Part shown: one piece after another, positions 1 through 33,265 of the stretch
Numbering within the stretch: the first letter of the stretch is position 1
How the letters are laid out: every line of letters starts with the position of its first letter
Assembly: GCA_963855995.1 (NCBI GenBank)
Contig: OY979725.1
Span: forward strand, 6,644,118 to 6,708,117
Origin: Muricea muricata
Lineage: Eukaryota; Cnidaria; Anthozoa; Malacalcyonacea; Plexauridae
Reading direction: 5' to 3'
DNA: 64,000 bases
Position numbers and translations under genes: made by a program
The notes under the pieces: model-generated
What the model was told of the DNA's origin: nothing
The model's database searches: none
What the model saw: the letters and a program-made list of their open reading frames with translations, nothing else

Positions 1-617
1 CTAAAAATTGCCGTCCTAAATCGATCACGGCGACGTTTTAGAGCTTAAAATGGTGTTTTCAGTGCTAAAGTGAACGAGTTGAGCGCAATGATGTACTGCA
101 ATCACGGACCTAAAAGAGACCTTCTAAATGGAAATTGCAGAACTTAGCAAGTCGGGAATCATGTTTTCGGTGCTCACACCATCCAGATGAGTGAAATAAC
201 ATGTTGAAATGAGAAACCTATAACTTGCTTGTAAACTAAAAAAAACGATCTTAGAACCATTAAAATCGCGTTTAAAGCGTTCTAGAAGCGATTTGAGCGT
301 AAAAACATGCTCAAATCACGAATTAAAAATTACCGTCTTAAATCGATCACAGCGACGTTTTAAAGCTTAAAATGGTGTTTTCAGTGATAAAGTGAACGAG
401 TTGAGCGCAATGATGTACTGCAATCACGGACCTAAAAGAGACCTTGTAAATGGAAATTGCAGAACTTAGCAAGTCGGGAATAATGTTTTCGGCGCTCAAA
501 CTATCGAGATGAGCGAAATAACATGTTGAAATGAGAAACCTATAACTTGCTTGTAAACTGAAAAGAAACGATCTTAGAACCATCAAAATCGCGTTTTAAA
601 CGTTCTAGAAGCGATTT

Positions 618-725
618 GAGCGTAAAAACATGTTCAAATCACGAACTAAAAATTAGCGTCTCAAATCGATCACGGCGACGTTTTAGAGCTTAAAATGGTG
701 TTTTCAGTGCTAAAGTGAACGAGTT
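618..725 (+). repeat. Subunit S1 of the A monomer (~108 bp)
   Basis: S1 runs from GAGCGTAAAAACATG to CGAGTT. Its first part (ACATGTTCAAATCACGAAC) aligns with the start of S3 (ACATGTTGAAATGAGAAAC), and its end (GGTGTTTTCAGTGCTAAA) aligns with the end of S2 (CATGTTTTCGGCGCTCAAA). Two copies of TAAAAA lie 24 bp apart in S1; in family B the interval between them is missing. S1 also holds the quasi-palindrome GTTTTAGAGCTTAAAA, the best-conserved stretch shared with family B. Confidence 0.8.
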
Positions 726-833
726 GAGCGCAATAATGTACTCCAATCACGGACCTAAAAGAGACCTTCTAAATGGAAATTGCAGAATTTAGCAAGTCGG
801 GAATCATGTTTTCGGCGCTCAAACCATCGAGAT
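726..833 (+). repeat. Subunit S2 of the A monomer (~108 bp)
   Basis: S2 runs from GAGCGCAAT to CGAGAT. CCAATCACGGACCTAAAA aligns with CAAATCACGAACTAAAA of S1 and with GAAATGAGAAACCTATAA of S3. The latter half carries GTCGGGAATCATG; the family B equivalent is GTCGGATATCATG, where the change creates a GATATC site in most B monomers. The first ~20 bp of S2, with the end of S1, is absent from B. Confidence 0.8.
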
Positions 834-940
834 GAGCGAAATAACATGTTGAAATGAGAAACCTATAACTTGCTTGTAAACTAAAAAGAAACGATCTTAG
901 AACTATAAAAATCGCGTTTTAAGCGTTCTAGAAGCGATTT
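834..940 (+). repeat. Subunit S3 of the A monomer (~107 bp)
   Basis: S3 runs from GAGCGAAATAACATG to AAGCGATTT. It is the only subunit kept at nearly full length in both families (107 bp in A, ~106 bp in B, for example 36583-36688). It includes CTTAGAA(C/T)(C/T)AT(C/A)AAAATCGCG and the GCGTTCTAGAAGCG palindrome region, which in B reads GCGTTCTCGAAGCG. Small variants of S3 (GTTGAAAGAG for GTTGAAATGAG, or GTTGAAAATAG) mark particular positions in the higher-order repeats. Confidence 0.8.
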
Positions 941-963
941 GAGCGTAAAAACATGCTCAAATC
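936..963. repeat. Inverted repeat in family A monomer (GATTTGAGC / GCTCAAATC)
   Basis: A perfect 9-bp arm GATTTGAGC (936-944) is separated by a 10-nt spacer from its reverse complement GCTCAAATC (955-963). It sits across the S3/S1 boundary and recurs in about half of the A monomers; the others have GTTCAAATC, shortening the arm. Family B lacks the right arm because it lies in the S1 deletion. The sequence could extrude a small hairpin; any function is speculative. Confidence 0.75.
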
Positions 964-1086
964 ACGAACTAAAAATTGCCGTCCTAAATCGAACACGGCG
1001 ACGTTTAATAGCTTAAAATGGTGTTTTCAGTGCTAAAGTGAACGAGTTGAGCGCAATGATGTACTGCAATCACGGACCTAAAAGAG

Positions 1087-4000
1087 ATCTTCTAAATGGA
1101 AATTGCAGAACTTAGCAGGTCGGGAATCATGTTTTCGGCGCTCAAACCATCGAGATGAGCGAAATAACATGTTGAAATGAAAAACCTATAACTTGATTGT
1201 AAACTGAAAAGGAATGATCTTAGAACAATCAAAATCGCGTTTTAAGCGTTCTAGAAGCGATTTGAGCGTAAAAACATGTTCAAATCACGAACTAAAAATT
1301 ACCGTCTTAAATCGATCACGGCGACGTTTTAGAGCTTAAAATGTTGTTTTCAGTGCTAAAGTGAGCGAGTTGAGCGCAATAATGTACTCCAATCACGGAC
1401 CTAAAACAGACCTTCTAAATGGAAATTGCAGAACTTAGCAAGTCGGGAATCATGTTTTCGGTGCTCAAACCATCGAGATGAGCGAAATAACATGTTGAAA
1501 ATAGAAACCTATAACTTCCTTTTAAACTAAAAAGAAACGATCTTAGAACCATAAAAATCGCGTTTTAAGCGTTCTAGAAGCGATTTGAGCGTAAAAACAT
1601 GCTCAAATCACGAACTAAAAATTGCCGTCCTAAATCGAACACGGCGACGTTTAAGAGCTTAAAATGGTGTTTTCAGTGCTAAAGTGAACGAGTTGAGCGC
1701 AATGATGTACTGCAATCACGGACCTAAAAGAGATCTTCTAAATGGAAATTGCAGAACTTAGCAGGTCGGGAATCATGTTTTCGGCGCTCAAACTATCGAG
1801 ATGAGCGAAATAACATGTTGAAAGAGAAACCTACAACTTGGTTGTAAACTGAAAAGAAACGATCTTAGAACCATCAAAATCGCGTTTTAAGCGTTCTAGA
1901 AGCGATTTGAGCGTAAAAACATGTTCAAATCACGAACTAAAAATTACCGTCTTAAATCGATCACGGCGACGTTTTGGAGCTTAAAATGGTGTTTTCAGTG
2001 CTAAAGTGAACGAGTTGAGCGCAATAATGTACTCCAATCACGGACCTAAAAGAGACTTTCTAAATGGAAATTGCAGAACTTAGCAAGTCAGGAATCATGT
2101 TTTCGGCGCTCAAACCATCAAGATGAGCGAAATAACATGTTGAAAATAGAAACCTATAACTTCCTTTTAAACTAAAAAGAAACGATCTTAGAACCATAAA
2201 AATCGAGTTTTAAGCGTTCTAGAAGCGATTTGAGCGTAAAAACATGCTCAAATCAAGAACTAAAAATTGCCGTCCTAAATTGATCACGGCGACGTTTAAG
2301 AGCTTAAAATGGTGTTTTCAGTGCTAAAGTGAACGAGTTGAGCGCAATGATGTACTGCAATCACGGACCTAAAAGAGATCTTCTAAATGGAAATTGCAGA
2401 ACTTAGGAAGTCGGGAATCATGTTTTCGGCGCTCAAACCATCGAGATGAGCGAAATAACATGTTGAAATGAAAAACCTATAACTTGCTTGTAAACTGAAA
2501 AGGAACGATCTTAGAACAATCAAAATCGCGTTTTAAGCGTTCTAGAAGCGATTTGAGCGTAAAAACATGTTCAAATCACGAACTAAAAATTACCGTCTTA
2601 AATCAATCACGGCGACGTTTTAGAGCTTAAAATGGTGTTTTCAGTGCTAAAGTGAGCGAGTTGAGCGCAATAATGTACTCCAATCACGGACCTAAAACAG
2701 ACCTTCTAAATGGAAATTGCAGAACTTAGCAAGTCGGGAATCATGTTTTCGGTGCTCAAACCATCGAGATGAGCGAAATAACTTGTTGAAAATAGAAACC
2801 TATAACTTCCTTTTAAACTAAAAAGAAACGATCTTAGAATCATAAAAATCGAGTTTTAAGCGTTCTAGAAGCGATTTGAGCGTAAAAACATGCTCAAATC
2901 AAGAACTAAAAATTGCCGTCCTAAATTGATCACGGCGACGTTTAAGAGCTTAAAATGGTGTTTTCAGTGCTAAAGTGAGCGAGTTGAGCGCAATAATGTA
3001 CTCGTATCACGGACCTAAAACAGACCTTCTAAATGGAAATTGCAGAACTTAGCAAGTCGGGAATCATGTTTTCGGCGCTAAAACCATCGAGATGAGCGAA
3101 ATAGCATGTTGAAATGAGAAACTTATAACTTGATTGTAAACTGAAAAGAAACGATCTTAGAACCATCAAAATCGCGTTTTAAGCGTTCTAGAAGCGATTG
3201 GAGCGTAAAAACATGCCCAAATCACGAACTAAAAATTACCGTCTTAAATCGATCACGGCGACGTTTTAGAGCTTAAAATGGAGTTTTCGGTGATAAAGTG
3301 AACGAGTTGAGCGCAATAATGTACTCCAATCACGGACCTAAAAGAGACCTTCTAAATGGAAATTGCAGAACTTAGCAAGTCGGGAATCATGTTTTCGGCG
3401 CTCAAACTATCGAGATGAGCGAAATAACGTGTTGAAAGAGAAACCTATAACTTGCTTGTAAACTGAAAAGAAACGATCTTAGAACCATCAAAATCGAGTT
3501 TTAAGCGTTCTAGAAGCGATTTGAGCGTAAAAACATGCTCAAATCAAGAACTAAAAATTGCCGTCCTAAATTGATCACGGCGACGTTTAAGAGCTTAAAA
3601 TGGTGTTTTCAGTGCTAAAGTGAACGAGTTGAGCGCAATGATGTACTGCAATCACGGACCTAAAAGAGATCTTCTAAATGGAAATTGCAGAACTTAGGAA
3701 GTCGGGAATCATGTTTTCGGCGCTCAAACCATCGAGATGAGCGAAATAACATGTTGAAATGAAAAACCTATAACTTGCTTGTAAACTGAAAAGAAACGAT
3801 CTTAGAACCATCAAAATCGCGTTTTAAGCGTTCTAGAAGCGATTTGAGCGTAAAAAGATGCTCAAATCACGAACTAAAAATTGGCGTCCTAAATCGAACA
3901 CGGCGACGTTTAAGAGCTTAAAATGGTGTTTTCAGTGCTAAAGTGAACGAGTTGAGCGCAATGATGTACTGCAATCACGGACCTAAAAGAGATCTTCTAA

Positions 4001-6360
4001 ATGGAAATTGCAGAACTTAGCAAGTCGGGAATCATGTTTTCGGCGCTCAAACCATCGAGATGAGCGAAATAACATGTTGAAATGAGAAACCTATAACTTG
4101 CTTGTAAACTAAAAAGAAACGATCTTAGAACCATCAAAATCGCGTTTTAAGCGTTCTACAAGCGATTTGAGCGTAAAAACATGTTCAAATCACGAAATAA
4201 AAATTACCGTCTTAAATCGATCACGGCGACGTTTTAGAGCTTAAAATAGAGTTTTCGGTGCTAAAGTGAACGAGTTGAGCGCAGAATGTACTGCAATCAC
4301 GGACCTAAAAGAGACCTTCTAAATGGAAATTGCAGAACTTAGCAAGTCGGGAACCATGTTTTCGGCGCTCAAACTATCGAGATGAGCGAAATAACATGTT
4401 GAAAGGAGAAACTTATAACTTGCTTGTAAACTGAAAAGGAACGATGTTAGAACAATCAAAATCGCGTTTTAAGCGTTCTAGAAGCGATTTAAGCGTAAAA
4501 ACATGTTCAAATCACGAACTAAAAATTACCGTCTTAAATCGATCACGGCGACGTTTTAGAGCTTAAAATGGTGTTTTCGGTGCTAAAGTGAGTGAGTTGA
4601 GCGCAATAATGTACTCCAATCACGGACCTAAAACAGACCTTCTAAATGGAAATTGCAGAACTTAGCAAGTCGGGAATCATGTTTTCGGTGCTCAAACCAT
4701 CGAGATGAGCGAAATAACATGTTGAAATGAGAAACCTATAACTTGCTTGTAAACTAAAAAGAAACGATCTTAGAACCATAAAAATCGCGTTTTAAGCGTT
4801 CTAGAAGCGATTTGAGCGTAAAAACATGTTCAAATCACGAACTAAAAATTACCGTCTTAAATCGATCACGGCGACGTTTTAGAGCTTAAAATGGTGTTTT
4901 CAGTGCTAAAGTGAACGAGTTGAGCGCAATATTGTCTCCAATCACGGACCTAAAAGAGACCTTCTAAATGGAAATTGCAGAACTTAGCAAGTCGGGAATC
5001 ATGTTTTCGGCGCTCAAACCATCGAGATGAGCGAAATAACATGTTGAAATGAGAAACCTATAACTTTCTTTTAAACTAAAAAGAAACGATCTTAGAACCA
5101 TAAAAATCGAGTTTTAAGCGTTCTACAAGCGATTTGAGCGTAAGAACATGCTCAAATCACGAATTAAAAATTGCCGTGTTAAATCGATCACGGCGACGTT
5201 TAAGAGCTTAAAATGGTGTTTACAGTGCTAAAGTGAACGAGTTGAGCGCAATGATGTACTGCAATCACGGACCTAAAAGAGATCTTCTAAATGGAAATTG
5301 CAGAACTTAGCAAGTCGGGAATCATGTTTTCGGCGCTCAAACCATCGAGATGAGCGAAATAACATGTTGAAATGAGAAACCTATAACTTGCTTGTAAACT
5401 GAAAAGAAACGATCGTAGAACCATCAAAATTGCGTTTTAAGCGTTCTAGAAGCGATTTGAGCGTAAAAACATGTTCAAATGACTAACTAAAAATTACCGT
5501 GTTAAATCGATCACGGCGACGTTTTAGAGCTTAAAATGGTGTTTTCAGTGCTAAATTGAACGAGTTGAGCGCAATAATGTACTGCAATCACGGACCTAAA
5601 AGAGACCTTCTAAATGGAAATTGCAGAACTTAGCAAGTCGGGAATCATGTTTTCGGCGCTAAAACCATCGAGATGAGCGAAATAGCATGTTGAAATGAGA
5701 AACCTATAACTTGATTGTAAACTGAAAAGAAACGATCTTAGAACCATCAAAATCGCGTTTTAAGCGTTCTAAAAGCGATTGGAGCGTAAAAACATGCTCA
5801 AATCACGAACTAAAAATTGCCGTCCTAAATCGATCACGGCGACGTTTAAGAGCTTAAAATGGTGTTTTCAGTGCTAAAGTGAACGATTTGAGCGCAATGA
5901 TGTACTGCAATCACGGACCTAAAAGAAACCTTCTAAATGGAAATTGCAGAACTTAGCAAGTCGGGAATCATGTTTTCGGCGCTAAAACCATCGAGATGAG
6001 CGAAATAGCATGTTGAAATCAGAAACCTATAACTTGATTGTAAACTGAAAAGAAACGATCTTAGAATTATCAAAATCGCGTTTTAAGCGTTCTAGAAGCG
6101 ATTTGAGCGTAAAAACATGTTCAAATGACGAACTAAAAATTACCGTGTTAAATCGATCACGGCGACGTTTTAGAGCTTAAAATGGTGTTTTCAGTGCTAA
6201 AGTGAACGAGTTGAGCGCAATGATGTACTTCAATCACGGACCTAAAAGAGACCTTCTAAATGGAAATTGCCGAACTTAGCAAGTCGGGAATCATGTTTTT
6301 AGTGCTCACACCATCGAGATGAGCGAAATAACATGTTGAAATGAGAAACCTATAACTTGC
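1087..6360 (+). repeat. Large block P of family A (first copy, ~5.27 kb)
   Basis: This block is repeated at about 13026-19590. The offset is 11939 bp (37 monomers) up to about 2.9 kb, for example the ACTTGTTGAAAATAG variant at 2781 and 14720. It is 13230 bp (41 monomers) afterwards, for example TTAAAATAGAG at 4241 and 17471. The block ends after the TTTTTAGTGCTCACACC variant near 6295, whose partner is near 19526. Confidence 0.75.
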
Positions 6361-6460
6361 TTGTAAACTAATAAAAACGATCTTAGAACCATCAAAATCG
6401 CGTTTTAAGCGTTCTAGAAGCGATTTGAGCGTAAAAACATGCTCAAATCACGAACTAAAA

Positions 6461-9364
6461 ATTACCCTCTTAAATCGATCACAGCGACGTTTTAAGGCTT
6501 AAAATGGTGTTTTCAGTGATAAAGTGAACGAGTTGAGCGCAATGATGTACTGCAATCACGGACCTAAAAGAGACCTTCTAAATGGAAATTGCAGAACTTA
6601 GCAAGTCGGGAATCATGTTTTCGGCGCTCAAACCATCGAGATGAGCGAAATAACATGTTGAAATGAGAAGCCTATAACTTGCTTGTAAACTAAAAAGAAA
6701 CGATCTTAGAACCATCAACATCGCGTTTTAAACGTTCTAGAAGCGATTTGAGCGTAAAAACATGCTCAAATCACGAACTAAAAATTGCCGTCCTAAATCG
6801 ATCACGGCCACGTTTAAGAGCTTAAAATGTTGTTTTCAGTGCTAAAGTGAACGAGTTGAGCGCAATAATGTACTGCAATCACGGACCTAAAAGAGACCTT
6901 CTAAATGGAAATTGCAGAACTTAGCAAGTCGGGAATCATGTTTTCGGCGCTCAACCTATCGAGATCAGCGAAATAACACGTTGAAATGAGAAACCTATAA
7001 CTTCCTTGTAAATTTAAAAAAACGATCTTAGAACCATCAAAATCGCGTTGTAAGCGTTCTGGAAGCGATTTGAGCGTAAAAACATGCTCAAATCACCAAC
7101 TAAAAATTGCCGTCCTAAATCGATCACGGCGACGTTTTAGAGCTTAAAATGGTGTTTTCAGTGCTAAAGTGAACGAGTTGAGCGCAATGATGTACTGCAA
7201 TCACGGACCTAAAAGAGACCTTCTAAATGGAAATTGCAGAACTTAGCAAGTCGGGAATCATGTTTTCGGTGCTCACACCATCCAGATGAGTGAAATAACA
7301 TGTTGAAATGAGAAACCTATAACTTGCTTGTAAACTAAAAAAAACGATCTTAGAACCATTAAAATCGCGTTTTAAGCGTTCTAGAAGCGATTTGAGCGTA
7401 AAAACATGCTCAAATCACGAATTAAAAATTACCGTCTTAAATCGATCACAGCGACGTTTTAAGGCTTAAAATGGTGTTTTCAGTGATAAAGTGAACGAGT
7501 TGAGCGCAATGATGTACTGCAATCACGGACCTAAAAGAGACCTTCTAAATGGAAATTGCAGAACTTAGCAAGTCGGGAATCATGTTTTCGGCGCTCAAAC
7601 TATCGAGATGAGCGAAATAACATGTTGAAATGAGAAACCTATAACTTGCTTGTAAACTGAAAAGAAACGATCTTAGAACCATCAAAATCGCGTTTTAAGC
7701 GCTCTAGAAGCGATTTGAGCGTAAAAACATGTTCAAATCACGAACTAAAAATTAGCGTCTCAAATCGATCACGGCGACGTTTTAAAGCTTAAAATGGTGT
7801 TTTCAGTGCTAAAGTGAACGAGTTGAGCGCAATAATGTACTCCAATCACGGACCTAAAAGAGACCTTCTAAATGGAAATTGCAGAATTTAGCAAGTCGGG
7901 AATCATGTTTTCGGCGCTCAAACCATCGAGATGAGCGAAATAACATGTTGAAATGAGAAACCTATAACTTGCTTGTAAACTAAAAAGAAACGATCTTAGA
8001 ACCATAAAAATCGCGTTTTAAGCGTTCTAGAAGCGATTTGAGCGTAAAAACATGCTCAAATCACGAACTAATAATTGCCGTCCTAAATCGAACACGGCGA
8101 CGTTTAAGAGCTTAAAATGGTGTTTTCAGTGCTAAAGTGAACGAGTTGAGCGCAATGATGTACTGATATCACGGACCTAAAAGAGATCTTCTAAATGGAA
8201 ATTGCAGAACTTAGCAGGTCGGGAATCATGTTTTCGGCGCTCAAACTATCGAGATGAGCGAAATAACATGTTGAAAGAGAAACCTATAACTTGCTTGTAA
8301 ACTGAAAAGAAACGATCTTAGAACCATCAAAATCACGTTTTAAGCGTTCTAGAAGCGATTTGAGCGTAAAAACATGTTCAAATCACGAACTAAAAACTAC
8401 CGTCTTAAATCGATCACGGCAACGTTTTGGAGCTTAAAATGGTGTTTTCAGTGCTAAAGTGAACGAGTTGAGCGCAATAAGGTACTCCAATCACGGACCT
8501 AAAAGAGACTTTCTAAATGGAAATTGCAGAACTTAGCAAGTCGGGAATCATGTTTTCGGCGCTCAAACCATCGAGATGAGCGAAATAACATGTTGATAAT
8601 AGAAACCTATAACTTCCTTTTAAACTAAAAAGAAACGATCTTAGAACCATAAAAATCGAGTTTTAAGCGTTCTAGAAGCGATTTGAGCGTAAAAACATGC
8701 TCAAATCAAGAACTAAAAATTGCCGTCCTAAATTGATCACGGCGACGTTTAAGAGCTTAAAATGGTGTTTTCAGTGCTAAACTGAACGAGTTGAGCGCAA
8801 TGATGTACTGCAATCACGGACCTAAAAGAGATCTTCTAAATGGAAATTGCAGAACTTAGGAAGTCGGGAATCATGTTTTCGGCGCTCAAACCATCGAGAT
8901 GAGCGAAATAACATGTTGAAATGAAAAACCTATAACTTGCTTGTAAACTGAAAAGGAACGATCTTAGAACAATCAAAATCGCGTTTTAAGCGTTCTAGAA
9001 GCGATTTGAGCGTAAAAACATGTTCAAATCACGAACTAAAAATTACCGTCTTAAATCGATCACGGCGACGTTTTAGAGCTTAAAATGTTGTTTTCAGTGC
9101 TAAAGTGAGCGAGTTGAGCGCAATAATGTACTCCAATCACGGACCTAAAACAGACCTTCTAAATGGAAATTGCAGAACTTAGCAAGTCGGGAATCATGTT
9201 TTCGGCGCTCAAACCATCGTGATGAGCGAAATAACATGTTGAAAATAGAAACCTATAACTTCCTTTTAAACTAAAAAGAAACGATCTTAGAACCATAAAA
9301 ATCGAGTTTTAAGCGTTCTAGAAGCGATTTGAGCGTAAAAACATGCTCAAATCACGAACTAAAA
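6461..9364 (+). repeat. 9-mer higher-order repeat (2904 bp), copy 1
   Basis: ATTACCCTCT starts at 6461, 9365 and 12269, giving a period of 2904 bp, i.e. nine monomers of 322.7 bp. Copy 1 carries the marker series CACAGCGACG with TTTTAAGGC (6482), CACGGCCACG (about 6802), the rare TCCAGATGAGTG (about 7281), TTAGCGTCTC (about 7753) and TACTGATATC (about 8161). The same series follows in the next copy at +2904. Confidence 0.88.
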
Positions 9365-12268
9365 ATTACCCTCTTAAATCGATCACAGCGACGTTTTAAG
9401 GCTTAAAATGGTGTTTTCAGTGATAAAGTGAACGAGTTGAGCGCAATGATGTACTGCAATCACGGACCTAAAAGAGACCTTCTAAATGGAAATTGCAGAA
9501 CTTAGCAAGTCGGGAATCATGTTTTCGGCGCTCAAACCATCGAGATGAGCGAAATAACATGTTGAAATGAGAAACCTATAACTTGCTTGTAAACTAAAAA
9601 GAAACGATCTTAGAACCATCAACATCGCGTTTTAAACGTTCTAGAAGCGATTTGAGCGTAAAAACATGCTCAAATCACGAACTAAAAATTGCCGTCCTAA
9701 ATCGATCACGGCCACGTTTAAGAGCTTAAAATGGTGTTTTCAGTGCTAAAGTGAACGAGTTGAGCGCAATAATGTACTGCAATCACGGACCTAAAAGAGA
9801 CCTTCTAAATGGAAATTGCAGAACTTAGCAAGTCGGGAATCATGTTTTCGGCGCTCAACCTATCGAGATGAGCGAAATAACACGTTGAAATGAGAAACCT
9901 ATAACTTCCTTGTAAATTTAAAAAAACGATCTTAGAACCATCAAAATCGCGTTGTAAGCGTTCTAGAAGCGAATTGAGCGTAAAAACATGCTCAAATCAC
10001 CAACTAAAAATTGCCGTCCTAAATCGATCACGGCGACGTTTTAGAGCTTAAAATGGTGTTTTCAGTGCTAAAGTGAACGAGTTGAGCGCAATGATGTACT
10101 GCAATCACGGACCTAAAAGAGACCTTCTAAATGGAAATTGCAGAACTTAGCAAGTCGGGAATCATGTTTTCGGTGCTCACACCATCCAGATGAGTGAAAT
10201 AACATGTTGAAATGAGAAACCTATAACTTGCTTGTAAACTAAAAAAAACGATCTTAGAACCATTAAAATCGCGTTTTAAGCGTTCTAGAAGCGATTTGAG
10301 CGTAAAAACATGCTCAAATCACGAATTAAAAATTACCGTCTTAAATCGATCACAGCGACGTTTTAAGGCTTAAAATGGTGTTTTCAGTGATAAAGTGAAC
10401 GAGTTGAGCGCAATGATGTACTGCAATCACGGACCTAAAAGAGACCTTCTAAATGGAAATTGCAGAACTTAGCAAGTCGGGAATCATGTTTTCGGCGCTC
10501 AAACTATCGAGATGAGCGAAATAACATGTTGAAATGAGAAACCTATAACTTGCTTGTAAACTGAAAAGAAACGATCTTAGAACCATCAAAATCGCGTTTT
10601 AAGCGCTCTAGAAGCGATTTGAGCGTAAAAACATGTTCAAATCACGAACTAAAAATTAGCGTCTCAAATCGATCACGGCGACGTTTTAAAGCTTAAAATG
10701 GTGTTTTCAGTGCTAAAGTGAACGAGTTGAGCGCAATAATGTACTCCAATCACGGACCTAAAAGAGACCTTCTAAATGGAAATTGCAGAATTTAGCAAGT
10801 CGGGAATCATGTTTTCGGCGCTCAAACCATCGAGATGAGCGAAATAACATGTTGAAATGAGAAACCTATAACTTGCTTGTAAACTAAAAAGAAACGATCT
10901 TAGAACCATAAAAATCGCGTTTTAAGCGTTCTAGAAGCGATTTGAGCGTAAAAACATGCTCAAATCACGAACTAAAAATTGCCGTCCTAAATCGAACACG
11001 GCGACGTTTAAGAGCTTAAAATGGTGTTTTCAGTGCTAAAGTGAACGAGTTGAGCGCAATGATGTACTGATATCACGGACCTAAAAGAGATCTTCTAAAT
11101 GGAAATTGCAGAACTTAGCAGGTCGGGAATCATGTTTTCGGCGCTCAAACTATCGAGATGAGCGAAATAACATGTTGAAAGAGAAACCTATAACTTGCTT
11201 GTAAACTGAAAAGAAACGATCTTAGAACCATCAAAATCACGTTTTAAGCGTTCTAGAAGCGATTTGAGCGTAAAAACATGTTCAAATCACGAACTAAAAA
11301 TTACCGTCTTAAATCGATCACGGCAACGTTTTGGAGCTTAAAATGGTGTTTTTAGTGCTAAAGTGAACGAGTTGAGCGCAATAAGGTACTCCAATCACGG
11401 ACCTAAAAGAGACTTTCTAAATGGAAATTGCAGAACTTAGCAAGTCGGGAATCATGTTTTCAGCGCTCAAACCATCGAGATGAGCGAAATAACATGTTGA
11501 TAATAGAAACCTATAACTTCCTTTTAAACTAAAAAGAAACGATCTTAGAACCATAAAAATCGAGTTTTAAGCGTTCTAGAAGCGATTTGAGCGTAAAAAC
11601 ATGCTCAAATCAAGAACTAAAAATTGCCGTCCTAAATTGATCACGGCGACGTTTAAGAGCTTAAAATGGTGTTTTCAGTGCTAAACTGAACGAGTTGAGC
11701 GCAATGATGTACTGCAATCACGGACCTAAAAGAGATCTTCTAAATGGAAATTGCAGAACTTAGGAAGTCGGGAATCATGTTTTCGGCGCTCAAACCATCG
11801 AGATGAGCGAAATAACATGTTGAAATGAAAAACCTATAACTTGCTTGTAAACTGAAAAGGAACGATCTTAGAACAATCAAAATCGCGTTTTAAGCGTTCT
11901 AGAAGCGATTTGAGCGTAAAAACATGTTCAAATCACGAACTAAAAATTACCGTCTTAAATCGATCACGGCGACGTTTTAGAGCTTAAAATGTTGTTTTCA
12001 GTGCTAAAGTGAGCGAGTTGAGCGCAATAATGTACTCCAATCACGGACCTAAAACAGACCTTCTAAATGGAAATTGCAGAACTTAGCAAGTCGGGAATCA
12101 TGTTTTCGGCGCTCAAACCATCGAGATGAGCGAAATAACATGTTGAAAATAGAAACCTATAACTTCCTTTTAAACTAAAAAGAAACGATCTTAGAACCAT
12201 AAAAATCGAGTTTTAAGCGTTCTAGAAGCGATTTGAGCGTAAAAACATGCTCAAATCACGAACTAAAA
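9365..12268 (+). repeat. 9-mer higher-order repeat (2904 bp), copy 2
   Basis: All markers of copy 1 recur at +2904 bp, including TCCAGATGAGTG at about 10185 and TACTGATATC at about 11065. By eye only a handful of substitutions separate the two copies, such as GTTTTTAGTGC near 11348 against GTTTTCAGTGC in copy 1, so the duplication is recent. Confidence 0.88.
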
Positions 12269-13020
12269 ATTACCCTCTTAAATCGATCACAGCGACGTTT
12301 TAAGGCTTAAAATGGTGTTTTCAGTGATAAAGTGAACGAGTTGAGCGCAATGATGTACTGCAATCACGGACCTAAAAGAGACCTTCTAAATGGAAATTGC
12401 AGAACTTAGCAAGTCGGGAATCATGTTTTCGGCGCTCAAACCATCGAGATGAGCGAAATAACATGTTGAAATGAGAAACCTATAACTTGCTTGTAAACTA
12501 AAAAGAAACGATCTTAGAACCATCAACATCGCGTTTTAAACGTTCTAGAAGCGATTTGAGCGTAAAAACATGCTCAAATCACGAACTAAAAATTGCCGTC
12601 CTAAATCGATCACGGCCACGTTTAAGAGCTTAAAATGGTGTTTTCAGTGCTAAAGTGAACGAGTTGAGCGCAATAATGTACTGCAATCACGGACCTAAAA
12701 GAGACCTTCTAAATGGAAATTGCAGAACTTAGCAAGTCGGGAATCATGTTTTCGGCGCTCAACCTATCGAGATGAGCGAAATAACACGTTGAAATGAGAA
12801 ACCTATAACTTCCTTGTAAATTTAAAAAAACGATCTTAAAACCATCAAAATCGCGTTGTAAGCGTTCTAGAAGCGATTTGAGCGTAAAAACATGCTCAAA
12901 TCACCAACTAAAAATTGCCGTCCTAAATCGATCACGGCGACGTTTTAGAGCTTAAAATGGTGTTTTCAGTGCTAAAGTGAACGAGTTGAGCGCAATGATG
13001 TACTGCAATCACGGACCTAA
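12269..13020 (+). repeat. 9-mer higher-order repeat, partial copy 3
   Basis: This piece matches the first 2.3 monomers of copies 1 and 2, with ATTACCCTCT at 12269 and CACGGCCACG near 12610. Near 13020 the sequence changes from the AGACCTTC variant expected from the 9-mer to AGATCTTC with CAGGTCGGG, where the second copy of block P begins. Confidence 0.78.
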
Positions 13021-13560
13021 AAGAGATCTTCTAAATGGAAATTGCAGAACTTAGCAGGTCGGGAATCATGTTTTCGGCGCTCAAACCATCGAGATGAGCG
13101 AAATAACATGTTGAAATGAAAAACCTATAACTTGCTTGTAAACTGAAAAGGAATGATCTTAGAACAATCAAAATCGCGTTTTAAGCGTTCTAGAAGCGAT
13201 TTGAGCGTAAAAACATGTTCAAATCACGAACTAAAAATTACCGTCTTAAATCGATCACGGCGACGTTTTAGAGCTTAAAATGTTGTTTTCAGTGCTAAAG
13301 TGAGCGAGTTAAGCGCAATAATGTACTCCAATCACGGACCTAAAACAGACCTTCTAAATGGAAATTGCAGAACTTAGCAAGTCGGGAATCATGTTTTCGG
13401 TGCTCAAACCATCGAGATGAGCGAAATAACATGTTGAAAATAGAAACCTATAACTTCCTTTTAAACTAAAAAGAAACGATCTTAGAACGATAAAAATCGC
13501 GTTTTAAGCGTTCTAGAAGCGATTTGAGCGTAAAAACATGCTCAAATCACCAACTAAAAA

Positions 13561-14851
13561 TTGCCGTCCTAAATCGAACACGGCGACGTTTAAGAGCTTA
13601 AAATGGTGTTTTCAGTGCTAAAGTGAACGAGTTGAGCGCAATGATGTACTGCAATCACGGACCTAAAAGAGATCTTCTAAATGGAAATTGCAGAACTTAG
13701 CAGGTCGGGAATCATGTTTTCGGCGCTCAAACTATCGAGATGAGCGAAATAACATGTTGAAAGAGAAACCTACAACTTGGTTGTAAACTGAAAAGAAACG
13801 ATCTTAGAACCATCAAAATCGCGTTTTAAGCGTTCTAGAAGCGATTTGAGCGTAAAAACATGTTCAAATCACGAACTAAAAATTACCGTCTTAAATCGAT
13901 CACGGCGACGTTTTGGAGCTTAAAATGGTGTTTTCAGTGCTAAAGTGAACGAGTTGAGCGCAATAATGTACTCCAATCACGGACCTAAAAGAGACTTTCT
14001 AAATGGAAATTGCAGAACTTAGCAAGTCAGGAATCATGTTTTCGGCGCTCAAACCATCGAGATGAGCGAAATAACATGTTGAAAATAGAAACCTATAACT
14101 TCCTTTTAAACTAAAAAGAAACGATCTTAGAACCATAAAAATCGAGTTTTAAGCGTTCTAGAAGCGATTTGAGCGTAAAAACATGCTCAAATCAAGAACT
14201 AAAAATTGCCGTCCTAAATTGATCACGGCGACGTTTAAGAGCTTAAAATGGTGTTTTCAGTGCTAAAGTGAACGAGTTGAGCGCAATGATGTACTGCAAT
14301 CACGGACCTAAAAGAGATCTTCTAAATGGAAATTGCAGAACTTAGGAAGTCGGGAATCATGTTTTCGGCGCTCAAACCATCGAGATGAGCGAAATAACAT
14401 GTTGAAATGAAAAACCTATAACTTGCTTGTAAACTGAAAAGGAACGATCTTAGAACAATCAAAATCGCGTTTTAAGCGTTCTAGAAGCGATTTGAGCGTA
14501 AAAACATGTTCAAATCACGAACTAAAAATTACCGTCTTAAATCGATCACGGCGACGTTTTAGAGCTAAAAATGGTGTTTTCAGTGCTAAAGTGAGCGAGT
14601 TGAGCGCAATAATGTACTCCAATCACGGACCTAAAACAGACCTTCTAAATGGAAATTGCAGAACTTAGCAAGTCGGGAATCATGTTTTCGGTGCTCAAAC
14701 CATCGAGATGAGCGAAATAACTTGTTGAAAATAGAAACCTATAACTTCCTTTTAAACTAAAAAGAAACGATCTTAGAATCATAAAAATCGAGTTTTAAGC
14801 GTTCTAGAAGCGATTTGAGCGTAAAAACATGCTCAAATCACGAACTAAAAA
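13561..14851 (+). repeat. 4-mer tandem duplication (1291 bp), copy 1
   Basis: TTGCCGTCCTAAATCGAACA begins at 13561 and again at 14852. The rare TACAACTTGG variant is at 13771 and 15062, the same 1291-bp step (four monomers). The corresponding region of the first block P (from 1622) has a single copy. Confidence 0.85.
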
Positions 14852-16142
14852 TTGCCGTCCTAAATCGAACACGGCGACGTTTAAGAGCTTAAAATGGTGT
14901 TTTCAGTGCTAAAGTGAACGAGTTGAGCGCAATGATGTACTGCAATCACGGACCTAAAAGAGATCTTCTAAATGGAAATTGCAGAACTTAGCAGGTCGGG
15001 AATCATGTTTTCGGCGCTCAAACTATCGAGATGAGCGAAATAACATGTTGAAAGAGAAACCTACAACTTGGTTGTAAACTGAAAAGAAACGATCTTAGAA
15101 CCATCAAAATCGCGTTTTAAGCGTTCTAGAAGCGATTTGAGCGTAAAAACATGTTCAAATCACGAACTAAAAATTACCGTCTTAAATCGATCACGGCGAC
15201 GTTTTGGAGCTTAAAATGGTGTTTTCAGTGCTAAAGTGAACGAGTTGAGCGCAATAATGTACTCCAATCACGGACCTAAAAGAGACTTTCTAAATGGAAA
15301 TTGCAGAACTTAGCAAGTCAGGAATCATGTTTTCGGCGCTCAAACCATCGAGATGAGCGAAATAACATGTTGAAAATAGAAACCTATAACTTCCTTTTAA
15401 ACTAAAAAGAAACGATCTTAGAACCATAAAAATCGAGTTTTAAGCGTTCTAGAAGCGATTTGAGCGTAAAAACATGCTCAAATCAAGAACTAAAAATTGC
15501 CGTCCTAAATTGATCACGGCGACGTTTAAGAGCTTAAAATGGTGTTTTCAGTGCTAAAGTGAACGAGTTGAGCGCAATGATGTACTGCAATCACGGACCT
15601 AAAAGAGATCTTCTAAATGGAAATTGCAGAACTTAGGAAGTCGGGAATCATGTTTTCGGCGCTCAAACCATCGAGATGAGCGAAATAACATGTTGAAATG
15701 AAAAACCTATAACTTGCTTGTAAACTGAAAAGGAACGATCTTAGAACAATCAAAATCGCGTTTTAAGCGTTCTAGAAGCGATTTGAGCGTAAAAACATGT
15801 TCAAATCACGAACTAAAAATTACCGTCTTAAATCGATCACGGCGACGTTTTAGAGCTTAAAATGGTGTTTTTAGTGCTAAAGTGAGCGAGTTGAGCGCAA
15901 TAATGTACTCCAATCACGGACCTAAAACAGACCTTCTAAATGGAAATTGCAGAACTTAGCAAGTCGGGAATCATGTTTTCGGTGCTCAAACCATCGAGAT
16001 GAGCGAAATAACTTGTTTAAAATAGAAACCTATAACTTCCTTTTAAACTAAAAAGAAACGATCTTAGAATCATAAAAATCGAGTTTTAAGCGTTCTAGAA
16101 GCGATTTGAGCGTAAAAACATGCTCAAATCAAGAACTAAAAA
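14852..16142 (+). repeat. 4-mer tandem duplication (1291 bp), copy 2
   Basis: This repeats 13561-14851 with very few differences; the ACTTGTTGAAAATAG near 14720 becomes ACTTGTTTAAAATAG at 16011. It is an expansion specific to this copy of block P, most simply explained by unequal exchange in register of four monomers. Confidence 0.83.
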
Positions 16143-17280
16143 TTGCCGTCCTAAATTGATCACGGCGACGTTTAAGAGCTTAAAATGGTGTTTTCAGTGC
16201 TAAAGTGAGCGAGTTGAGCGCAATAATGTACTCCAATCACGGACCTAAAACAGACCTTCTAAATGGAAATTGCAGAACTTAGCAAGTCGGGAATCATGTT
16301 TTCGGCGCTAAAACCATCGAGATGAGCGAAATAGCATGTTGAAATGAGAAACTTATAACTTGATTGTAAACTGAAAAGAAACGATCTTAGAACCATCAAA
16401 ATCGCGTTTTAAGCGTTCTAGAAGCGATTGGAGCGTAAAAACATGCTCAAATCACGAACTAAAAATTACCGTCTTAAATCGATCACGGCGACGTTTTAGA
16501 GCTTAAAATGGAGTTTTCGGTGATAAAGTGAACGAGTTGAGCGCAATAATGTACTCCAATCACGGACCTAAAAGAGACCTTCTAAATGGAAATTGCAGAA
16601 CTTAGCAAGTCGGGAATCATGTTTTCGGCGCTCAAACTATCGAGATGAGCGAAATAACGTGTTGAAAGAGAAACCTATAACTTGCTTGTAAACTGAAAAG
16701 AAACGATCTTAGAACCATCAAAATCGAGTTTTAAGCGTTCTAGAAGCGATTTGAGCGTAAAAACATGCTCAAATCAAGAACTAAAAATTGCCGTCCTAAA
16801 TTGATCACGGCGACGTTTAAGAGCTTAAAATGGTGTTTTCAGTGCTAAAGTGAACGAGTTGAGCGCAATGATGTACTGCAATCACGGACCTAAAAGAGAT
16901 CTTCTAAATGGAAATTGCAGAACTTAGGAAGTCGGGAATCATGTTTTCGGCGCTCAAACCATCGAGATGAGCGAAATAACATGTTGAAATGAAAAACCTA
17001 TAACTTGCTTGTAAACTGAAAAGAAACGATCTTAGAACCATCAAAATCGCGTTTTAAGCGTTCTAGAAGCGATTTGAGCGTAAAAAGATGCTCAAATCAC
17101 GAACTAAAAATTGGCGTCCTAAATCGAACACGGCGACGTTTAAGAGCTTAAAATGGTGTTTTCAGTGCTAAAGTGAACGAGTTGAGCGCAATGATGTACT
17201 GCAATCACGGACCTAAAAGAGATCTTCTAAATGGAAATTGCAGAACTTAGCAAGTCGGGAATCATGTTTTCGGCGCTCAA

Positions 17281-19540
17281 ACCATCGAGATGAGCGAAAT
17301 AACATGTTGAAATGAGAAACCTATAACTTGCTTGTAAACTAAAAAGAAACGATCTTAGAACCATCAAAATCGCGTTTTAAGCGTTCTACAAGCGATTTGA
17401 GCGTAAAAACATGTTCAAATCACGAACTAAAAATTACCGTCTTAAATCGATCACGGCGACGTTTTAGAGCTTAAAATAGAGTTTTCGGTGCTAAAGTGAA
17501 CGAGTTGAGCGCAGAATGTACTGCAATCACGGACCTAAAAGAGACCTTCTAAATGGAAATTGCAGAACTTAGCAAGTCGGGAACCATGTTTTCGGCGCTC
17601 AAACTATCGAGATGAGCGAAATAACATGTTGAAAGGAAAAACTTATAACTTGCTTGTAAACTGAAAAGGAACGATGTTAGAACAATCAAAATCGCGTTTT
17701 AAGCGTTCTAGAAGCGATTTAAGCGTAAAAACATGTTCAAATCACGAACTAAAAATTACCGTCTTAAATCGATCACGGCGACGTTTTAGAGCTTAAAATG
17801 GTGTTTTCGGTGCTAAAGTGAGTGAGTTGAGCGCAATAATTAACTCCAATCACGGATCTAAAACAGACCTTCTAAATGGAAATTGCAGAACTTAGCAAGT
17901 CGGGAATCATGTTTTCGGTGCTCAAACCATCGAGATGAGCGAAATAACATGTTGAAATGAGAAACCTATAACTTGCTTGTAAACTAAAAAGAAACGATCT
18001 TAGAACCATAAAAATCGCGTTTTAAGCGTTCTAGAAGCGATTTGAGCGTAAAAACATGTTCAAATCACGAACTAAAAATTACCGTCTTAAATCGATCACG
18101 GCGACGTTTTAGAGCTTAAAATGGTGTTTTCAGTGCTAAAGTGAACGAGTTGAGCGCAATATTGTACTCCAATCACGGACCTAAAAGAGACCTTCTAAAT
18201 GGAATTTGCAGAACTTAGCAAGTCGGGAATCATGTTTTCGGCGCTCAAACCATCGAGATGAGCGAAATAACATGTTGAAATGAGAAACCTATAACTTTCT
18301 TTTAAACTAAAAAGAAACGATCTTAGAACCATAAAAATCGAGTTTTAAGCGTTCTACAAGCGATTTGAGCGTAAGAACATGCTCAAATCACGAATTAAAA
18401 ATTGCCGTGTTAAATCGATCACGGCGACGTTTAAGAGCTTAAAATGGTGTTTTCAGTGCTAAAGTGAACGAGTTGAGCGCAATGATGTACTGCAATCACG
18501 GACCTAAAAGAGATCTTCTAAATGGAAATTGCAGAACTTAGCAAGTCGGGAATCATGTTTTCGGCGCTCAAACCATCGAGATGAGCGAAATAACATGTTG
18601 AAATGAGAAACCTATAACTTGCTTGTAAACTGAAAAGAAACGATCGTAGAACCATCAAAATCGCGTTTTAAGCGTTCTAGAAGCGATTTGAGCGTAAAAA
18701 CATGTTCAAATGACGAACTAAAAATTACCGTGTTAAATCGATCACGGCGACGTTTTAGAGCTTAAAATGGTGTTTTCAGTGCTAAATTGAACGAGTTGAG
18801 CGCAATAATGTACTGCAATCACGGACCTAAAAGAGACCTTCTAAATGGAAATTGCAGAACTTAGCAAGTCGGGAATCATGTTTTCGGCGCTAAAACCATC
18901 GAGATGAGCGAAATAGCATGTTGAAATGAGAAACCTATAACTTGATTGTAAACTGAAAAGAAACGATCTTAGAACCATCAAAATCGCGTTTTAAGCGTTC
19001 TAAAAGCGATTGGAGCGTAAAAACATGCTCAAATCACGAACTAAAAATTGCCGTCCTAAATCGATCACGGCGACGTTTAAGAGCTTAAAATGGTGTTTTC
19101 AGTGCTAAAGTGAACGATTTGAGCGCAATGATGTACTGCAATCACGGACCTAAAAGAAACCTTCTAAATGGAAATTGCAGAACTTAGCAAGTCGGGAATC
19201 ATGTTTTCGGCGCTAAAACCATCGAGATGAGCGAAATAGCATGTTGAAATGAGAAACCTATAACTTGATTGTAAACTGAAAAGAAACGATCTTAGAATTA
19301 TCAAAATCGCGTTTTAAGCGTTCTAGAAGCGATTTGAGCGTAAAAACATGTTCAAATGACGAACTAAAAATTACCGTGTTAAATCGATCACGGCGACGTT
19401 TTAGAGCTTAAAATGGTGTTTTCAGTGCTAAAGTGAACGAGTTGAGCGCAATGATGTACTGCAATCACGGACCTAAAAGAGACCTTCTAAATGGAAATTG
19501 CCGAACTTAGCAAGTCGGGAATCATGTTTTTAGTGCTCAC
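17281..19540 (+). repeat. 7-mer higher-order repeat (2260 bp), copy 1
   Basis: The TTAAAATAGAG variant with the shortened GCGCAGAATGTAC box occurs at 17471 and 19731, 2260 bp apart (seven monomers). Intervening markers (GTAAGAACATG near 18372, GAACGATTTGAGCG near 19107) recur at +2260. This unit overlaps the end of the second block P. Confidence 0.8.
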
Positions 19541-21755
19541 ACCATCGAGATGAGCGAAATAACATGTTGAAATGAGAAACCTATAACTTGCTTGTAAACT
19601 AAAAAGAAACGATCTTAGAACCATCAAAATCGCGTTTTAAGCGTTCTAGAAGCGATTTGAGCGTAAAAACATGTTCAAATCACGAACTAAAAATTACCGT
19701 CTTAAATCGATCACGGCGACGTTTTAGAGCTTAAAATAGAGTTTTCGGTGCTAAAGTGAACGAGTTGAGCGCAGAATGTACTGCAATCACGGACCTAAAA
19801 GAGACCTTCTAAATGGAAATTGCAGAACTTAGCAAGTCGGGAACCATGTTTTCGGCGCTCAAACTATCGAGATGAGCGAAATAACATGTTGAAAGGAGAA
19901 ACTTATAACTTGCTTGTAAACTGAAAAGGAACGATGTTAGAACAATCAAAATCGCGTTTTAAGCGTTCTAGAAGCGATTTAAGCGTAAAAACATGTTCAA
20001 ATCACGAACTAAAAATTACCGTCTTAAATCGATCACGGCGACGTTTTAGAGCTTAAAATGGTGTTTTCGGTGCTAAAGTGAGTGAGTTGAGCGCAATAAT
20101 GTACTCCAATCACGGACCTAAAACAGACCTTCTAAATGGAAATTGCAGAACTTAGCAAGTCGGGAATCATGTTTTCGGTGCTCAAACCATCGAGATGAGC
20201 GAAATAACATGTTGAAATGAGAAACCTATAACTTGCTTGTAAACTAAAAAGAAACGATCTTAGAACCATAAAAATCGCGTTTTAAGCGTTCTAGAAGCGA
20301 TTTGAGCGTAAAAACATGTTCAAATCACGAACTAAAAATTACCGTCTTAAATCGATCACGGCGACGTTTTAGAGCTTAAAATGGTGTTTTCAGTGCTAAA
20401 GTGAACGAGTTGAGCGCAATATTGTACTCCAATCACGGACCTAAAAGAGACCTTCTAAATGGAAATTGCAGAACTTAGCAAGTCGGGAATCATGTTTTCG
20501 GCGCTCAAACCATCGAGATGAGCGAAATAACATGTTGAAATGAGAAACCTATAACTTTCTTTTAAACTAAAAAGAAACGATCTTAGAACCATAAAAATCG
20601 AGTTTTAAGCGTTCTACAAGCGATTTGAGCGTAAGAACATGCTCAAATCACGAATTAAAAATTGCCGTGTTAAATCGATCACGGCGACGTTTAAGAGCTT
20701 AAAATGGTGTTTTCAGTGCTAAAGTGAACGAGTTGAGCGCAATGATGTACTGCAATCACGGACCTAAAAGAGATCTTCTAAATGGAAATTGCAGAACTTA
20801 GCAAGTCGGGAATCATGTTTTCGGCGCTCAAACCATCGAGATGAGCGAAATAACATGTTGAAATGAGAAACCTATAACTTGCTTGTAAACTGAAAAGAAA
20901 CGATCGTAGAACCATCAAAATCGCGTTTTAAGCGTTCTAGAAGCGATTTGAGCGTAAAAACATGTTCAAATGACGAACTAAAAATTACCGTGTTAAATCG
21001 ATCACGGCGACGTTTTAGAGCTTAAAATGGTGTTTTCAGTGCTAAATTGAACGAGTTGAGCGCAATAATGTACTGCAATCACGGACCTAAAAGAGACCTT
21101 CTAAATGGAAATTGCAGAACTTAGCAAGTCGGGAATCATGTTTTCGGCGCTAAAACCATCGAGATGAGCGAAATAGCATGTTGAAATGAGAAACCTATAA
21201 CTTGATTGTAAACTGAAAAGAAACGATCTTAGAATTATCAAAATCGCGTTTTAAGCGTTCTAAAAGCGATTGGAGCGTAAAAACATGCTCAAATCACGAA
21301 CTAAAAATTGCCGTCCTAAATCGATCACGGCGACGTTTAAGAGCTTAAAATGGTGTTTTCAGTGCTAAAGTGAACGATTTGAGCGCAATGATGTACTGCA
21401 ATCACGGACCTAAAAGAAACCTTCTAAATGGAAATTGCAGAACTTAGCAAGTCGGGAATCATGTTTTCGGCGCTAAAACCATCGAGATGAGCGAAATAGC
21501 ATGTTGAAATGAGAAACCTATAACTTGATTGTAAACTGAAAAGAAACGATCTTAGAATTATCAAAATCGCGTTTTAAGCGTTCTAGAAGCGATTTGAGCG
21601 TAAAAACATGTTCAAATGACGAACTAAAAATTACCGTGTTAAATCGATCACGGCGACGTTTTAGAGCTTAAAATGGTGTTTTCAGTGCTAAAGTGAACGA
21701 GTTGAGCGCAATGATGTACTGCAATCACGGACCTAAAAGAGACCTTCTAAATGGA
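19541..21755 (+). repeat. 7-mer higher-order repeat, copy 2
   Basis: This follows 17281-19540 at +2260 bp until about 21755, where the first copy reads TTGCCGAACTTAG and this copy reads TTGCAGAACTTAG followed by the TTTTCGACGCTCAAAC variant of the next block. Only a few substitutions, for example GAATTATC for GAACCATC, separate the copies. Confidence 0.78.
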
Positions 21756-21790
21756 AATTGCAGAACTTAGCAAGTCGGGAATCATGTTTT

Positions 21791-32753: not shown

Positions 32754-32826
32754 CTAAACCGAAATTTCTGATCTTACCATGTCGGATATCATGTTTGCGG
32801 CGCTACGTGTTGAAATGAGAAACCTA
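32754..32826 (+). repeat. B monomer with a private 24-bp deletion at ~32804
   Basis: The usual GCGGCGCTCTAACTATCG, ATGAGCGGAACAACGTG reads GCGGCGCTACGTGTTG here. Twenty-four bases, including the S3 GAGCG box, are missing. I found no second copy of this deletion in the window, so it was not spread by the local amplifications. Confidence 0.75.
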
Positions 32827-33065
32827 GAACTTTCTTTGCAAGTGAAAAAAATGAGCTTAGAATCATCAAAATCACGTTTTAAGCGTTCTCGAAGCGATTT
32901 GAGTGCAAAAAGCTGCCTAAGTCGATGACGGCAACGTTTCAATGCTTAAAATGATTTTTGAGAGCTAAACTTAAGACCTAAAGGGCAGCTACTAAACCGA
33001 AATTTCTGATCTTCCATGTCGGATATCATGTTGCGGCGCCCTAACTATCAAAATGACCGGAACAA

Positions 33066-33265
33066 NNNNNNNNNNNNNNNNNNNNNNNNNNNNNNNNNNN
33101 NNNNNNNNNNNNNNNNNNNNNNNNNNNNNNNNNNNNNNNNNNNNNNNNNNNNNNNNNNNNNNNNNNNNNNNNNNNNNNNNNNNNNNNNNNNNNNNNNNNN
33201 NNNNNNNNNNNNNNNNNNNNNNNNNNNNNNNNNNNNNNNNNNNNNNNNNNNNNNNNNNNNNNNNN
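33066..33265. other. Assembly gap (200 N) inside the B array
   Basis: Exactly 200 N. A round number like this is normally a scaffolder placeholder for an unknown length. Both flanks are forward B monomers: the left stops within S3 after GACCGGAACAA and the right resumes in S1 at CTGTCTAAATCAATAACGG. In a complete monomer these two points are about 108 bp apart, so the true missing length should be near 108 + n x 265 bp rather than 200. Apparent open frames across the N run are meaningless. Confidence 0.98.

What the first reader, a model, noticed from the sequence alone, without database searches (positions are those of the whole stretch)
295..940. The 323-bp satellite monomer is a fossil trimer of a ~108-bp unit
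GAGCG boxes lie at 295, 403, 511, 618, 726 and 834, with the next at 941: spacings 108, 108, 107, 108, 108, 107. The three intervals also align over their length, e.g. ACATGTTCAAATCACGAAC (S1), GTACTCCAATCACGGAC (S2) and ACATGTTGAAATGAGAAAC (S3), and again at GGTGTTTTCAGTGCT, CATGTTTTCGGCGCT and CGCGTTTTAAGCGTT. Subunit divergence far exceeds monomer divergence, so the trimer formed first and was then amplified as a whole.
Basis: seen in the sequence. Interest (0 to 1): 0.8.

Follow-up and report, generated by a model that had tools for sequence, protein, structure and literature searches.

The report
Coral centromere-like satellite, once a trimer
The 323-base repeat that fills half of this stretch of an octocoral genome really is three old, diverged copies of a roughly 108-base unit, and it belongs to a very abundant satellite DNA found on several chromosomes; it is a clear new example of a well-known way in which satellite DNA grows.

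Summary
Autocorrelation peaks at 108 and 215 bp. The three consensus subunits align at 58-64% identity; 0 of 2000 shuffles reach any pair's score, and similarity survives masking of the boxes. Monomers are about 95% identical, subunits 54-58%: the trimer came first.

Added here: the 264-bp satellite in the other half of the window (B) is the same trimer minus about 26 and 32 bp; A and B subunits pair by position, so the trimer predates the A/B split. Related units lie on C3, C6, C7, C9, C11, C12 and C44 as well as C10; a 35-base core occurs 46,287 times. The genome is an octocoral's (mitochondrial mutS). A weaker 21.5-bp periodicity (p about 0.003) suggests an older layer inside the 108-bp unit.

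Best reading: an abundant, probably (peri)centromeric satellite grown by stepwise multimerisation. Centromere function is inferred, not shown. New member of a known kind. The search for free 108-bp arrays did not complete.

The parts
1..30676 (+). A array: about 95 head-to-tail 323-bp monomers, each S1+S2+S3 (108+108+107 bp)
   Evidence: TRF; 94 of 94 anchor intervals 320-325 bp, mean pairwise identity 0.948
295..402 (+). subunit S1 in the finding's first copy
   Evidence: GAGCG boxes at 295 and 403
403..510 (+). subunit S2 in the finding's first copy
   Evidence: GAGCG boxes at 403 and 511
511..617 (+). subunit S3 in the finding's first copy
   Evidence: GAGCG boxes at 511 and 618
618..725 (+). 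subunit S1, second copy
726..833 (+). subunit S2, second copy
834..940 (+). subunit S3, second copy
30674..31515 (-). inverted block of 3.2 B units between the A array and the forward B array
   Evidence: 91-95% identical to B units of L046 (C10 7.2 Mb) in the six best alignments shown
31547..33065 (+). B array, first part (264-bp units)
33066..33265 (.). assembly gap of 200 N
33266..64000 (+). B array: 264-bp units = S3 (106 bp) + S1 lacking about 26 bp + S2, with about 32 bp lost across the S1/S2 junction
   Evidence: mean pairwise identity 0.916 over 111 of 113 intervals; the other two (438 bp) hold an insert
33677..33781 (+). example S3 subunit of B
   Evidence: GAGCG positions; sequence
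33782..33938 (+). example shortened S1+S2 of B
   Evidence: GAGCG positions; sequence

Best explanation
This is a major satellite DNA of an octocoral. A tandem array of a unit of about 108 bp once existed; three neighbouring, already diverged copies were taken up together as a new 323-bp unit, which was then amplified and is now found on several chromosomes. One branch lost about 26 bp inside S1 and about 32 bp over the S1/S2 junction and became the 264-bp satellite B. The subunits now differ by about 40%, and length changes in today's arrays go almost only by whole 323-bp or 264-bp units, as expected if exchange needs closer similarity. The likely role is as centromeric or pericentromeric DNA, because on C10 it forms more than 1.5 Mb near the middle of the chromosome and it lies well inside the other large contigs examined. 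Shown: trimer structure, its age relative to the A/B split and to present arrays, presence on at least eight contigs. Inferred: a free 108-bp array as ancestor, unequal exchange and block duplication as the mechanism, and centromere function (about 0.6). The confidence below is for the structural history.
For: Periodicity and subunit alignment far beyond shuffles. Subunit identity 0.54-0.58 against 0.94-0.96 within type. A1-B1 0.85, A2-B2 0.74, A3-B3 0.87, all other pairs 0.43-0.59; tree support 0.97-0.99. 46,287 matches of a 35-base core within 3 mismatches, 0 for the pattern read backwards; the listed places (only the first 100 or so) lie on C3, C6 and C7; B-type matches on C10 and C44; 120-bp probes on C9, C11 and C12. 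Array positions: C3 29.64-30.04 of 60.66 Mb, C7 7.40 of 15.02, C10 5.5-7.2 of 13.90, C6 5.13 of 16.98. Monomers of C10 loci are 0.94-0.97 alike, those of different contigs 0.87-0.92. Two copies of one LINE-like insert, 99.7% identical, at the same site with the same flanks and 97 kb apart in the A array: blocks of the array are copied with their passengers.
Against: No free 108-bp array is known; the search for it did not complete. The middle third of the subunit alignment is weak. Homogenisation by chromosome is clear for C10 and C7 (within-locus 0.951 on C7) but not for C3 (0.903 within, 0.892-0.906 to C10 loci) and hardly for C6 (0.910 against 0.897-0.909) (few monomers). One of 347 sampled A intervals joins S3 to S1 by an 86-bp deletion, so exchange between subunits is rare, not absent. 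For centromere function: no CENP-A data, no CENP-B box in the window with up to 1 mismatch, ordinary dyad symmetry, C6 array at 30% of the contig, 0 of 2 probes on C8, four contigs probed only near their middles, and C1, C2, C4, C5 not examined.
Confidence: 0.9

Rival explanations
1. The 108-bp register is not common descent but shared short boxes (GAGCG, GTTTT) kept at regular spacing by a binding protein or by DNA helix phasing.
For: Conservation is highest near the boxes at both ends. In A, positions identical in all three subunits vary least among today's monomers (0.015 against 0.046; p 0.002 stratified by base, 0.0005 on 148 monomers from the window and 15 other loci; 0 of 107 circular shifts as strong), and differ less between the A and B consensus (7% against 21%). 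A/T dinucleotides show a 10.7-10.8-bp period in A and B (1 of 300 shuffles each).
Against: Similarity survives masking both boxes (0, 0 and 2 of 2000 shuffles). In B the same positions are no less variable (0.051 against 0.057, stratified p 0.52), and A and B site variation are uncorrelated (Spearman 0.001). The A results and the A/B difference are biased the same way: positions chosen as unchanged in A exclude recent changes in A.
Confidence: 0.07
2. Only two of the three segments are related; the third is unrelated sequence.
For: S2-S3 is the weakest pair (z 5.8; 2 of 2000 after masking).
Against: All three pairs are significant on their own and best at the same register.
Confidence: 0.02
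3. B (264 bp) is ancestral and A arose from it by two insertions.
For: Either direction fits the gaps in the A/B alignment.
Against: The stretches missing from B S1 and S2 are present and alignable in S3 of both A and B and in the other A subunits, so they are original parts of the 108-bp unit. Pieces from C3, C6 and C7 have full-length units and the C11 probe keeps the S1/S2 stretch; the C9 probe seems to lack it.
Confidence: 0.04
4. The satellite is pericentromeric or general heterochromatin, and the centromere proper lies elsewhere (for example in the 11-bp arrays beside it).
For: An 11-bp array fills three of three sampled loci at C10 5.0-5.4 Mb next to the A array, and a similar-looking sequence lies at C11 6.5 Mb.
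Against: None decisive; function was not testable here.
Confidence: 0.35

Closest known systems
Mouse major satellite (MaSat, 234 bp; review PMC8122249, passages seen)
   Same: A pericentric satellite whose monomer is composed of smaller repeats (four of 58-60 bp) and is amplified as one unit.
   Different: No sequence relation was tested; three subunits of 108 bp here instead of four of 58-60; mean monomer divergence here is about 5% (A) to 8% (B).
Drosophila melanogaster 1.688 satellite family (353, 356, 359 and 260 bp; passage of PMC8122249)
   Same: Related satellites with one clearly shorter length variant, as B (264 bp) is to A (323 bp).
   Different: Unrelated organism; that the 260-bp form is a deletion derivative is recalled, not read. 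Here A and B lie side by side on one chromosome.
Human alpha satellite higher-order repeats (PMC8122249, passages)
   Same: Blocks of diverged units (about 70% alike) amplified as one highly alike block.
   Different: Subunits here are more diverged and no CENP-B box was found in the window; whether free single-subunit arrays exist could not be searched.

Membership tests
hierarchical satellite (monomer built from diverged subrepeats) | long head-to-tail array of alike monomers | tested here: met
hierarchical satellite (monomer built from diverged subrepeats) | monomer divides into subunits that share descent | tested here: met
   0 of 2000 shuffles for each of 3 pairs; masked test 0, 0, 2 of 2000
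hierarchical satellite (monomer built from diverged subrepeats) | subunit divergence well above monomer divergence | tested here: met
   identity 0.54-0.58 against 0.94-0.96
hierarchical satellite (monomer built from diverged subrepeats) | free arrays of the ancestral unit | not tested
   search not answered
centromeric satellite | large array at one place per chromosome on most chromosomes | tested here: inconclusive
   found on C3, C6, C7 and C10, on C9, C11, C12 by 120-bp probes aimed at the middles (4 of 8 probes hit; 0 of 2 on C8), and on contig C44; C1, C2, C4, C5 not examined; uniqueness per chromosome not tested
centromeric satellite | carries CENP-A nucleosomes | not testable with these tools
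   no chromatin data
alpha-satellite-like (CENP-B box satellites) | CENP-B box | tested here: not met
   window only: 0 with at most 1 mismatch on either strand; 3 and 39 with 2, no chance level computed

The most novel reading that the evidence does not exclude
The satellite is a three-level fossil: a repeat of about 21.5 bp (two helical turns) was multiplied five-fold into the 108-bp unit, that three-fold into the 323-bp monomer, and this became the centromeric DNA of most chromosomes of an octocoral. The three strongest Fourier harmonics of the A consensus are the 30th, 45th and 15th (10.77, 7.18 and 21.53 bp); simulated trimers without this layer do as well in 446 of 146,925 runs. The one deletion that joins S3 to S1 is 86 bp long, four times 21.5 (a single case, seen after the idea). 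Against it: the highest single harmonic is not unusual (394 of 2000 simulations reach it), S2 alone shows no such lags, and helix phasing of A/T tracts is a rival.
Probability: 0.35. Interest if true: 0.5.

Novelty: new member of a known kind. Interest (0 to 1): 0.4.

Why it matters
Among the papers listed by six searches (capped lists of 3 of 3, 20 of 2155, 20 of 372, 1 of 1, 3 of 3 and 15 of 5481) I saw, by titles and abstract openings, none on an octocoral centromeric satellite; that is no proof of absence. If centromeric, this gives octocorals a sequence handle for their centromeres and a readable relative order of events: 108-bp unit, trimer, then the A/B split and the present arrays. It also offers a natural case for how far repeats must diverge before exchange between them becomes rare.

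Tried and rejected
Selection on the 108-bp module: A seemed to show it and the A/B difference too, B variation did not, and the choice of positions biases the first two; not claimed. Dyad symmetry: best dyad no better than shuffles in A (109 of 200 reach it) or B (102 of 200); 6-bp stems are somewhat high in A (6 of 200 reach it) and less so in B (26 of 200). CENP-B box: none in the window with up to 1 mismatch. Two LINE-like inserts at one site looked like target choice, but 99.7% identity and shared flanks point to copying with the array. No Rfam family reaches its threshold in the window. I first took the mitochondrial COX1 for fungal; gene order and mitochondrial mutS point to an octocoral (passages of PMC4316637, say mutS is found only in octocorals). 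The 108-bp signal in B is weak (0.330 at lag 107, 0.294 at best in 205-224). A word search in PMC10719294 for satellite, centromer and tandem repeat found nothing; PMC9005458 (passages) maps gene probes near stony-coral centromeres, and the passages shown name no satellite of this kind. A search for papers on satellite subrepeats gave none.

Full report
Where the window lies. The window is C10:6644118-6708117 of a 453-Mb genome in 74 contigs. Contig C74 is mitochondrial: nad1, an rRNA and cox1 on one strand, cox2, atp8 and atp6 on the other (gene names and the rRNA are my reading of the sequence), no tRNA found in the piece, and it carries a mutS gene (C74:15972-16499, 120 bits). Passages of PMC4316637 say that mitochondrial mutS is found only in octocorals. 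The host is therefore an octocoral; the species is not known to me.

The observation. The left half of the window (1-30676) is a 323-bp array, the right half (from 30674) a 264-bp array. GAGCG lies at each position given in the finding. Of 283 GAGCG intervals in the A array, 255 are 106-108 bp. Lags 108 and 215 stand out in the autocorrelation (0.467 and 0.462 against a median of 0.266). Cut at the boxes, the A consensus gives subunits of 108, 108 and 107 bp. Their global alignments score 83, 86 and 71, against shuffle means of 27, 31 and 28; the largest of 2000 shuffles was 60, 59 and 53. Rotated registers reach at most 48, 58 and 44. After masking GAGCG and GTTTT the three pairs give z of 6.0, 5.0 and 4.1. 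46 of 108 columns are identical in all three, against 8.3 by permutation. The weak spot is the middle third of the subunit.

Order of events. The 94 window A monomers are 94.8% identical on average. Cut into subunits (47 of the 94 monomers compared), each type is 93.8-95.7% alike, while different types are 54.3-58.1% alike. The trimer is thus much older than the present arrays. All 94 window intervals are 320-325 bp. In 12 sampled A loci of C10 the anchor gave 347 intervals: 328 of 317-354 bp, 16 that are halves of 8 ordinary monomers, two of about 3.55 kb that hold an insert, and one of 561 bp. The last is two monomers with an 86-bp deletion that joins the middle of S3 to the middle of S1. 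So length changes by whole monomers prevail, and exchange between subunits is rare but not absent. In the four B loci checked (L042-L045) the 148 intervals are 242-267 bp.

The second satellite is the same trimer. The B consensus (264 bp; 111 of 113 intervals used, the other two carry an insert) aligns to A over its length except for about 26 bp in S1 (in several gaps) and 32 bp across the S1/S2 junction. A tree of six subunit sequences pairs A1 with B1, A2 with B2 and A3 with B3 at support 0.97-0.99 (short sequences, FastTree). The missing stretches exist in S3 of both, so loss in B is simpler than gain in A. A 120-bp probe from C9 passes the S1/S2 junction of B with a 1-base gap but is otherwise at least as close to A (scores 137 to A, 124 to B), a hint from one probe that the two losses were separate steps.

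Extent in the genome. Samples on C10 show an 11-bp array at 5.0, 5.2 and 5.4 Mb, A at 12 of 12 loci from 5.5 to 6.6 Mb (two of them partly, with an insert), and B at 5 of 5 loci from 6.72 to 7.2 Mb, the last reversed and ending against other sequence. A 35-base core of the S3/S1 junction matches 24,385 times forward and 21,902 times reverse with up to 3 mismatches; the pattern read backwards matches 0 times. In the window this core finds 95 A sites and 95 sites in the main B array of about 116 units, so the genome holds at least about 46,000 units, roughly 14 Mb or 3% (my estimate at 264-323 bp each). The listed places, only the first 100 or so, lie on C3, C6 and C7; a B monomer also finds C44. 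Pieces from C3, C6 and C7 consist of 320-325-bp units, with one unresolved interval of 638 bp on C6. Monomers of C10 loci are 94-97% alike, those of different contigs 87-92%; within-locus identity is 95% on C7 but only 90-91% on C3 and C6, about the same as their identity to C10 (up to 10 monomers per locus), so homogenisation by chromosome is shown for C10 and C7 only. Of eight 120-bp probes aimed at the middles of C8, C9, C11 and C12, four hit (C9 one of two, C11 one of two, C12 two of two, one of them weak; C8 none of two). C1, C2, C4 and C5 were not examined.

A deeper layer. The three strongest Fourier harmonics of the A consensus are 30, 45 and 15 per monomer, that is 10.77, 7.18 and 21.53 bp. 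Simulated trimers with similar composition and subunit divergence reach the observed best triple in 446 of 146,925 runs, and have such a triple as their top three in 426 (13 of 5000 in an earlier run). The summed power at the first five multiples of 15 is reached by 4 of 2000, the fundamental alone by 120 of 2000, and the highest single harmonic by 394 of 2000. A comb test on plain shuffles gives 2 of 300 for A (best 21.4 bp) and 9 of 300 for B (best 20.7 bp), not independent of each other. S1 and S3 alone show lags of 20-23 and 42-43 among their best, S2 does not. The 86-bp deletion equals four such steps, one case only. A five-fold repeat of about 21.5 bp inside the 108-bp unit is plausible; helix phasing of A/T tracts is the rival (10.7-10.8-bp period of A/T dinucleotides), though it does not obviously predict the 7.18-bp harmonic. 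The 15 segments give only a weak consensus.

How it works. Stepwise multimerisation followed by homogenisation is the standard account of such satellites (established knowledge; mouse major satellite and Drosophila 1.688 in PMC8122249, passages seen). The data here fit it, and the pair of LINE-like inserts with shared flanks 97 kb apart, like the pair of short inserts with shared flanks in B, points to block duplication. The role as centromeric or pericentromeric DNA rests on abundance, array length and position inside the contigs, with the bias that four contigs were probed only near the middle. Motif tests gave nothing (CENP-B box; dyads). CpG is over-represented (observed/expected 1.63 in A, 1.66 in B), which suggests no strong germline methylation of the repeat.

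Verdict. The finding is correct, and its interpretation is supported and extended. The kind of thing is well known; the instance is new to me and was not seen in the paper listings. Interest 0.4.

Noticed in passing
window 30674-31530: An inverted block of about 840 bp of B units sits between the A array and the forward B array; it is 91-95% like B units at C10 7.2 Mb, where B also runs in reverse.
   Followed up: partly
window about 54688-54861 and 58033-58206: Two like inserts of about 174 bp in B monomers, apparently with long inverted ends and a TTAA at both borders, so perhaps a piggyBac-like MITE (recalled); same flanks, so probably copied with the array.
   Followed up: partly
window 31547-64000: B has at least two sub-variants at the old S1/S2 junction, one with GAAGGTTAAACACAAGACC and one with GAGAGCTAAACTTAAGACC (read).
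   Followed up: no
L033 from 6998: An 86-bp deletion fuses S3 to S1 in one pair of A monomers.
   Followed up: partly
L030:5172-8404 and L031:2193-5415: Two 99.7% identical LINE-like inserts (reverse-transcriptase type by eye) at the same site of an A monomer, 97 kb apart, apparently copied with the array.
   Followed up: partly
L046 from about 4700: The B array at C10 7.2 Mb ends against an element that matches the insert of L030 in translated comparison (31-50% identity in the five rows shown).
   Followed up: partly
L027, L028, L029 (C10 5.0-5.4 Mb) and L055 (C11 6.5 Mb): A long array of an 11-bp unit like TATAAGACAGG flanks the A array on C10; a similar-looking sequence appears on C11.
   Followed up: no
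A and B consensus: CpG observed/expected is 1.63 in A and 1.66 in B, suggesting that the repeat is not strongly methylated in the germline.
   Followed up: no
G000 C1:38414782-38416095: A nearly full-length cox1 match with one stop lies in contig C1, probably a mitochondrial insertion in the nuclear genome.
   Followed up: no
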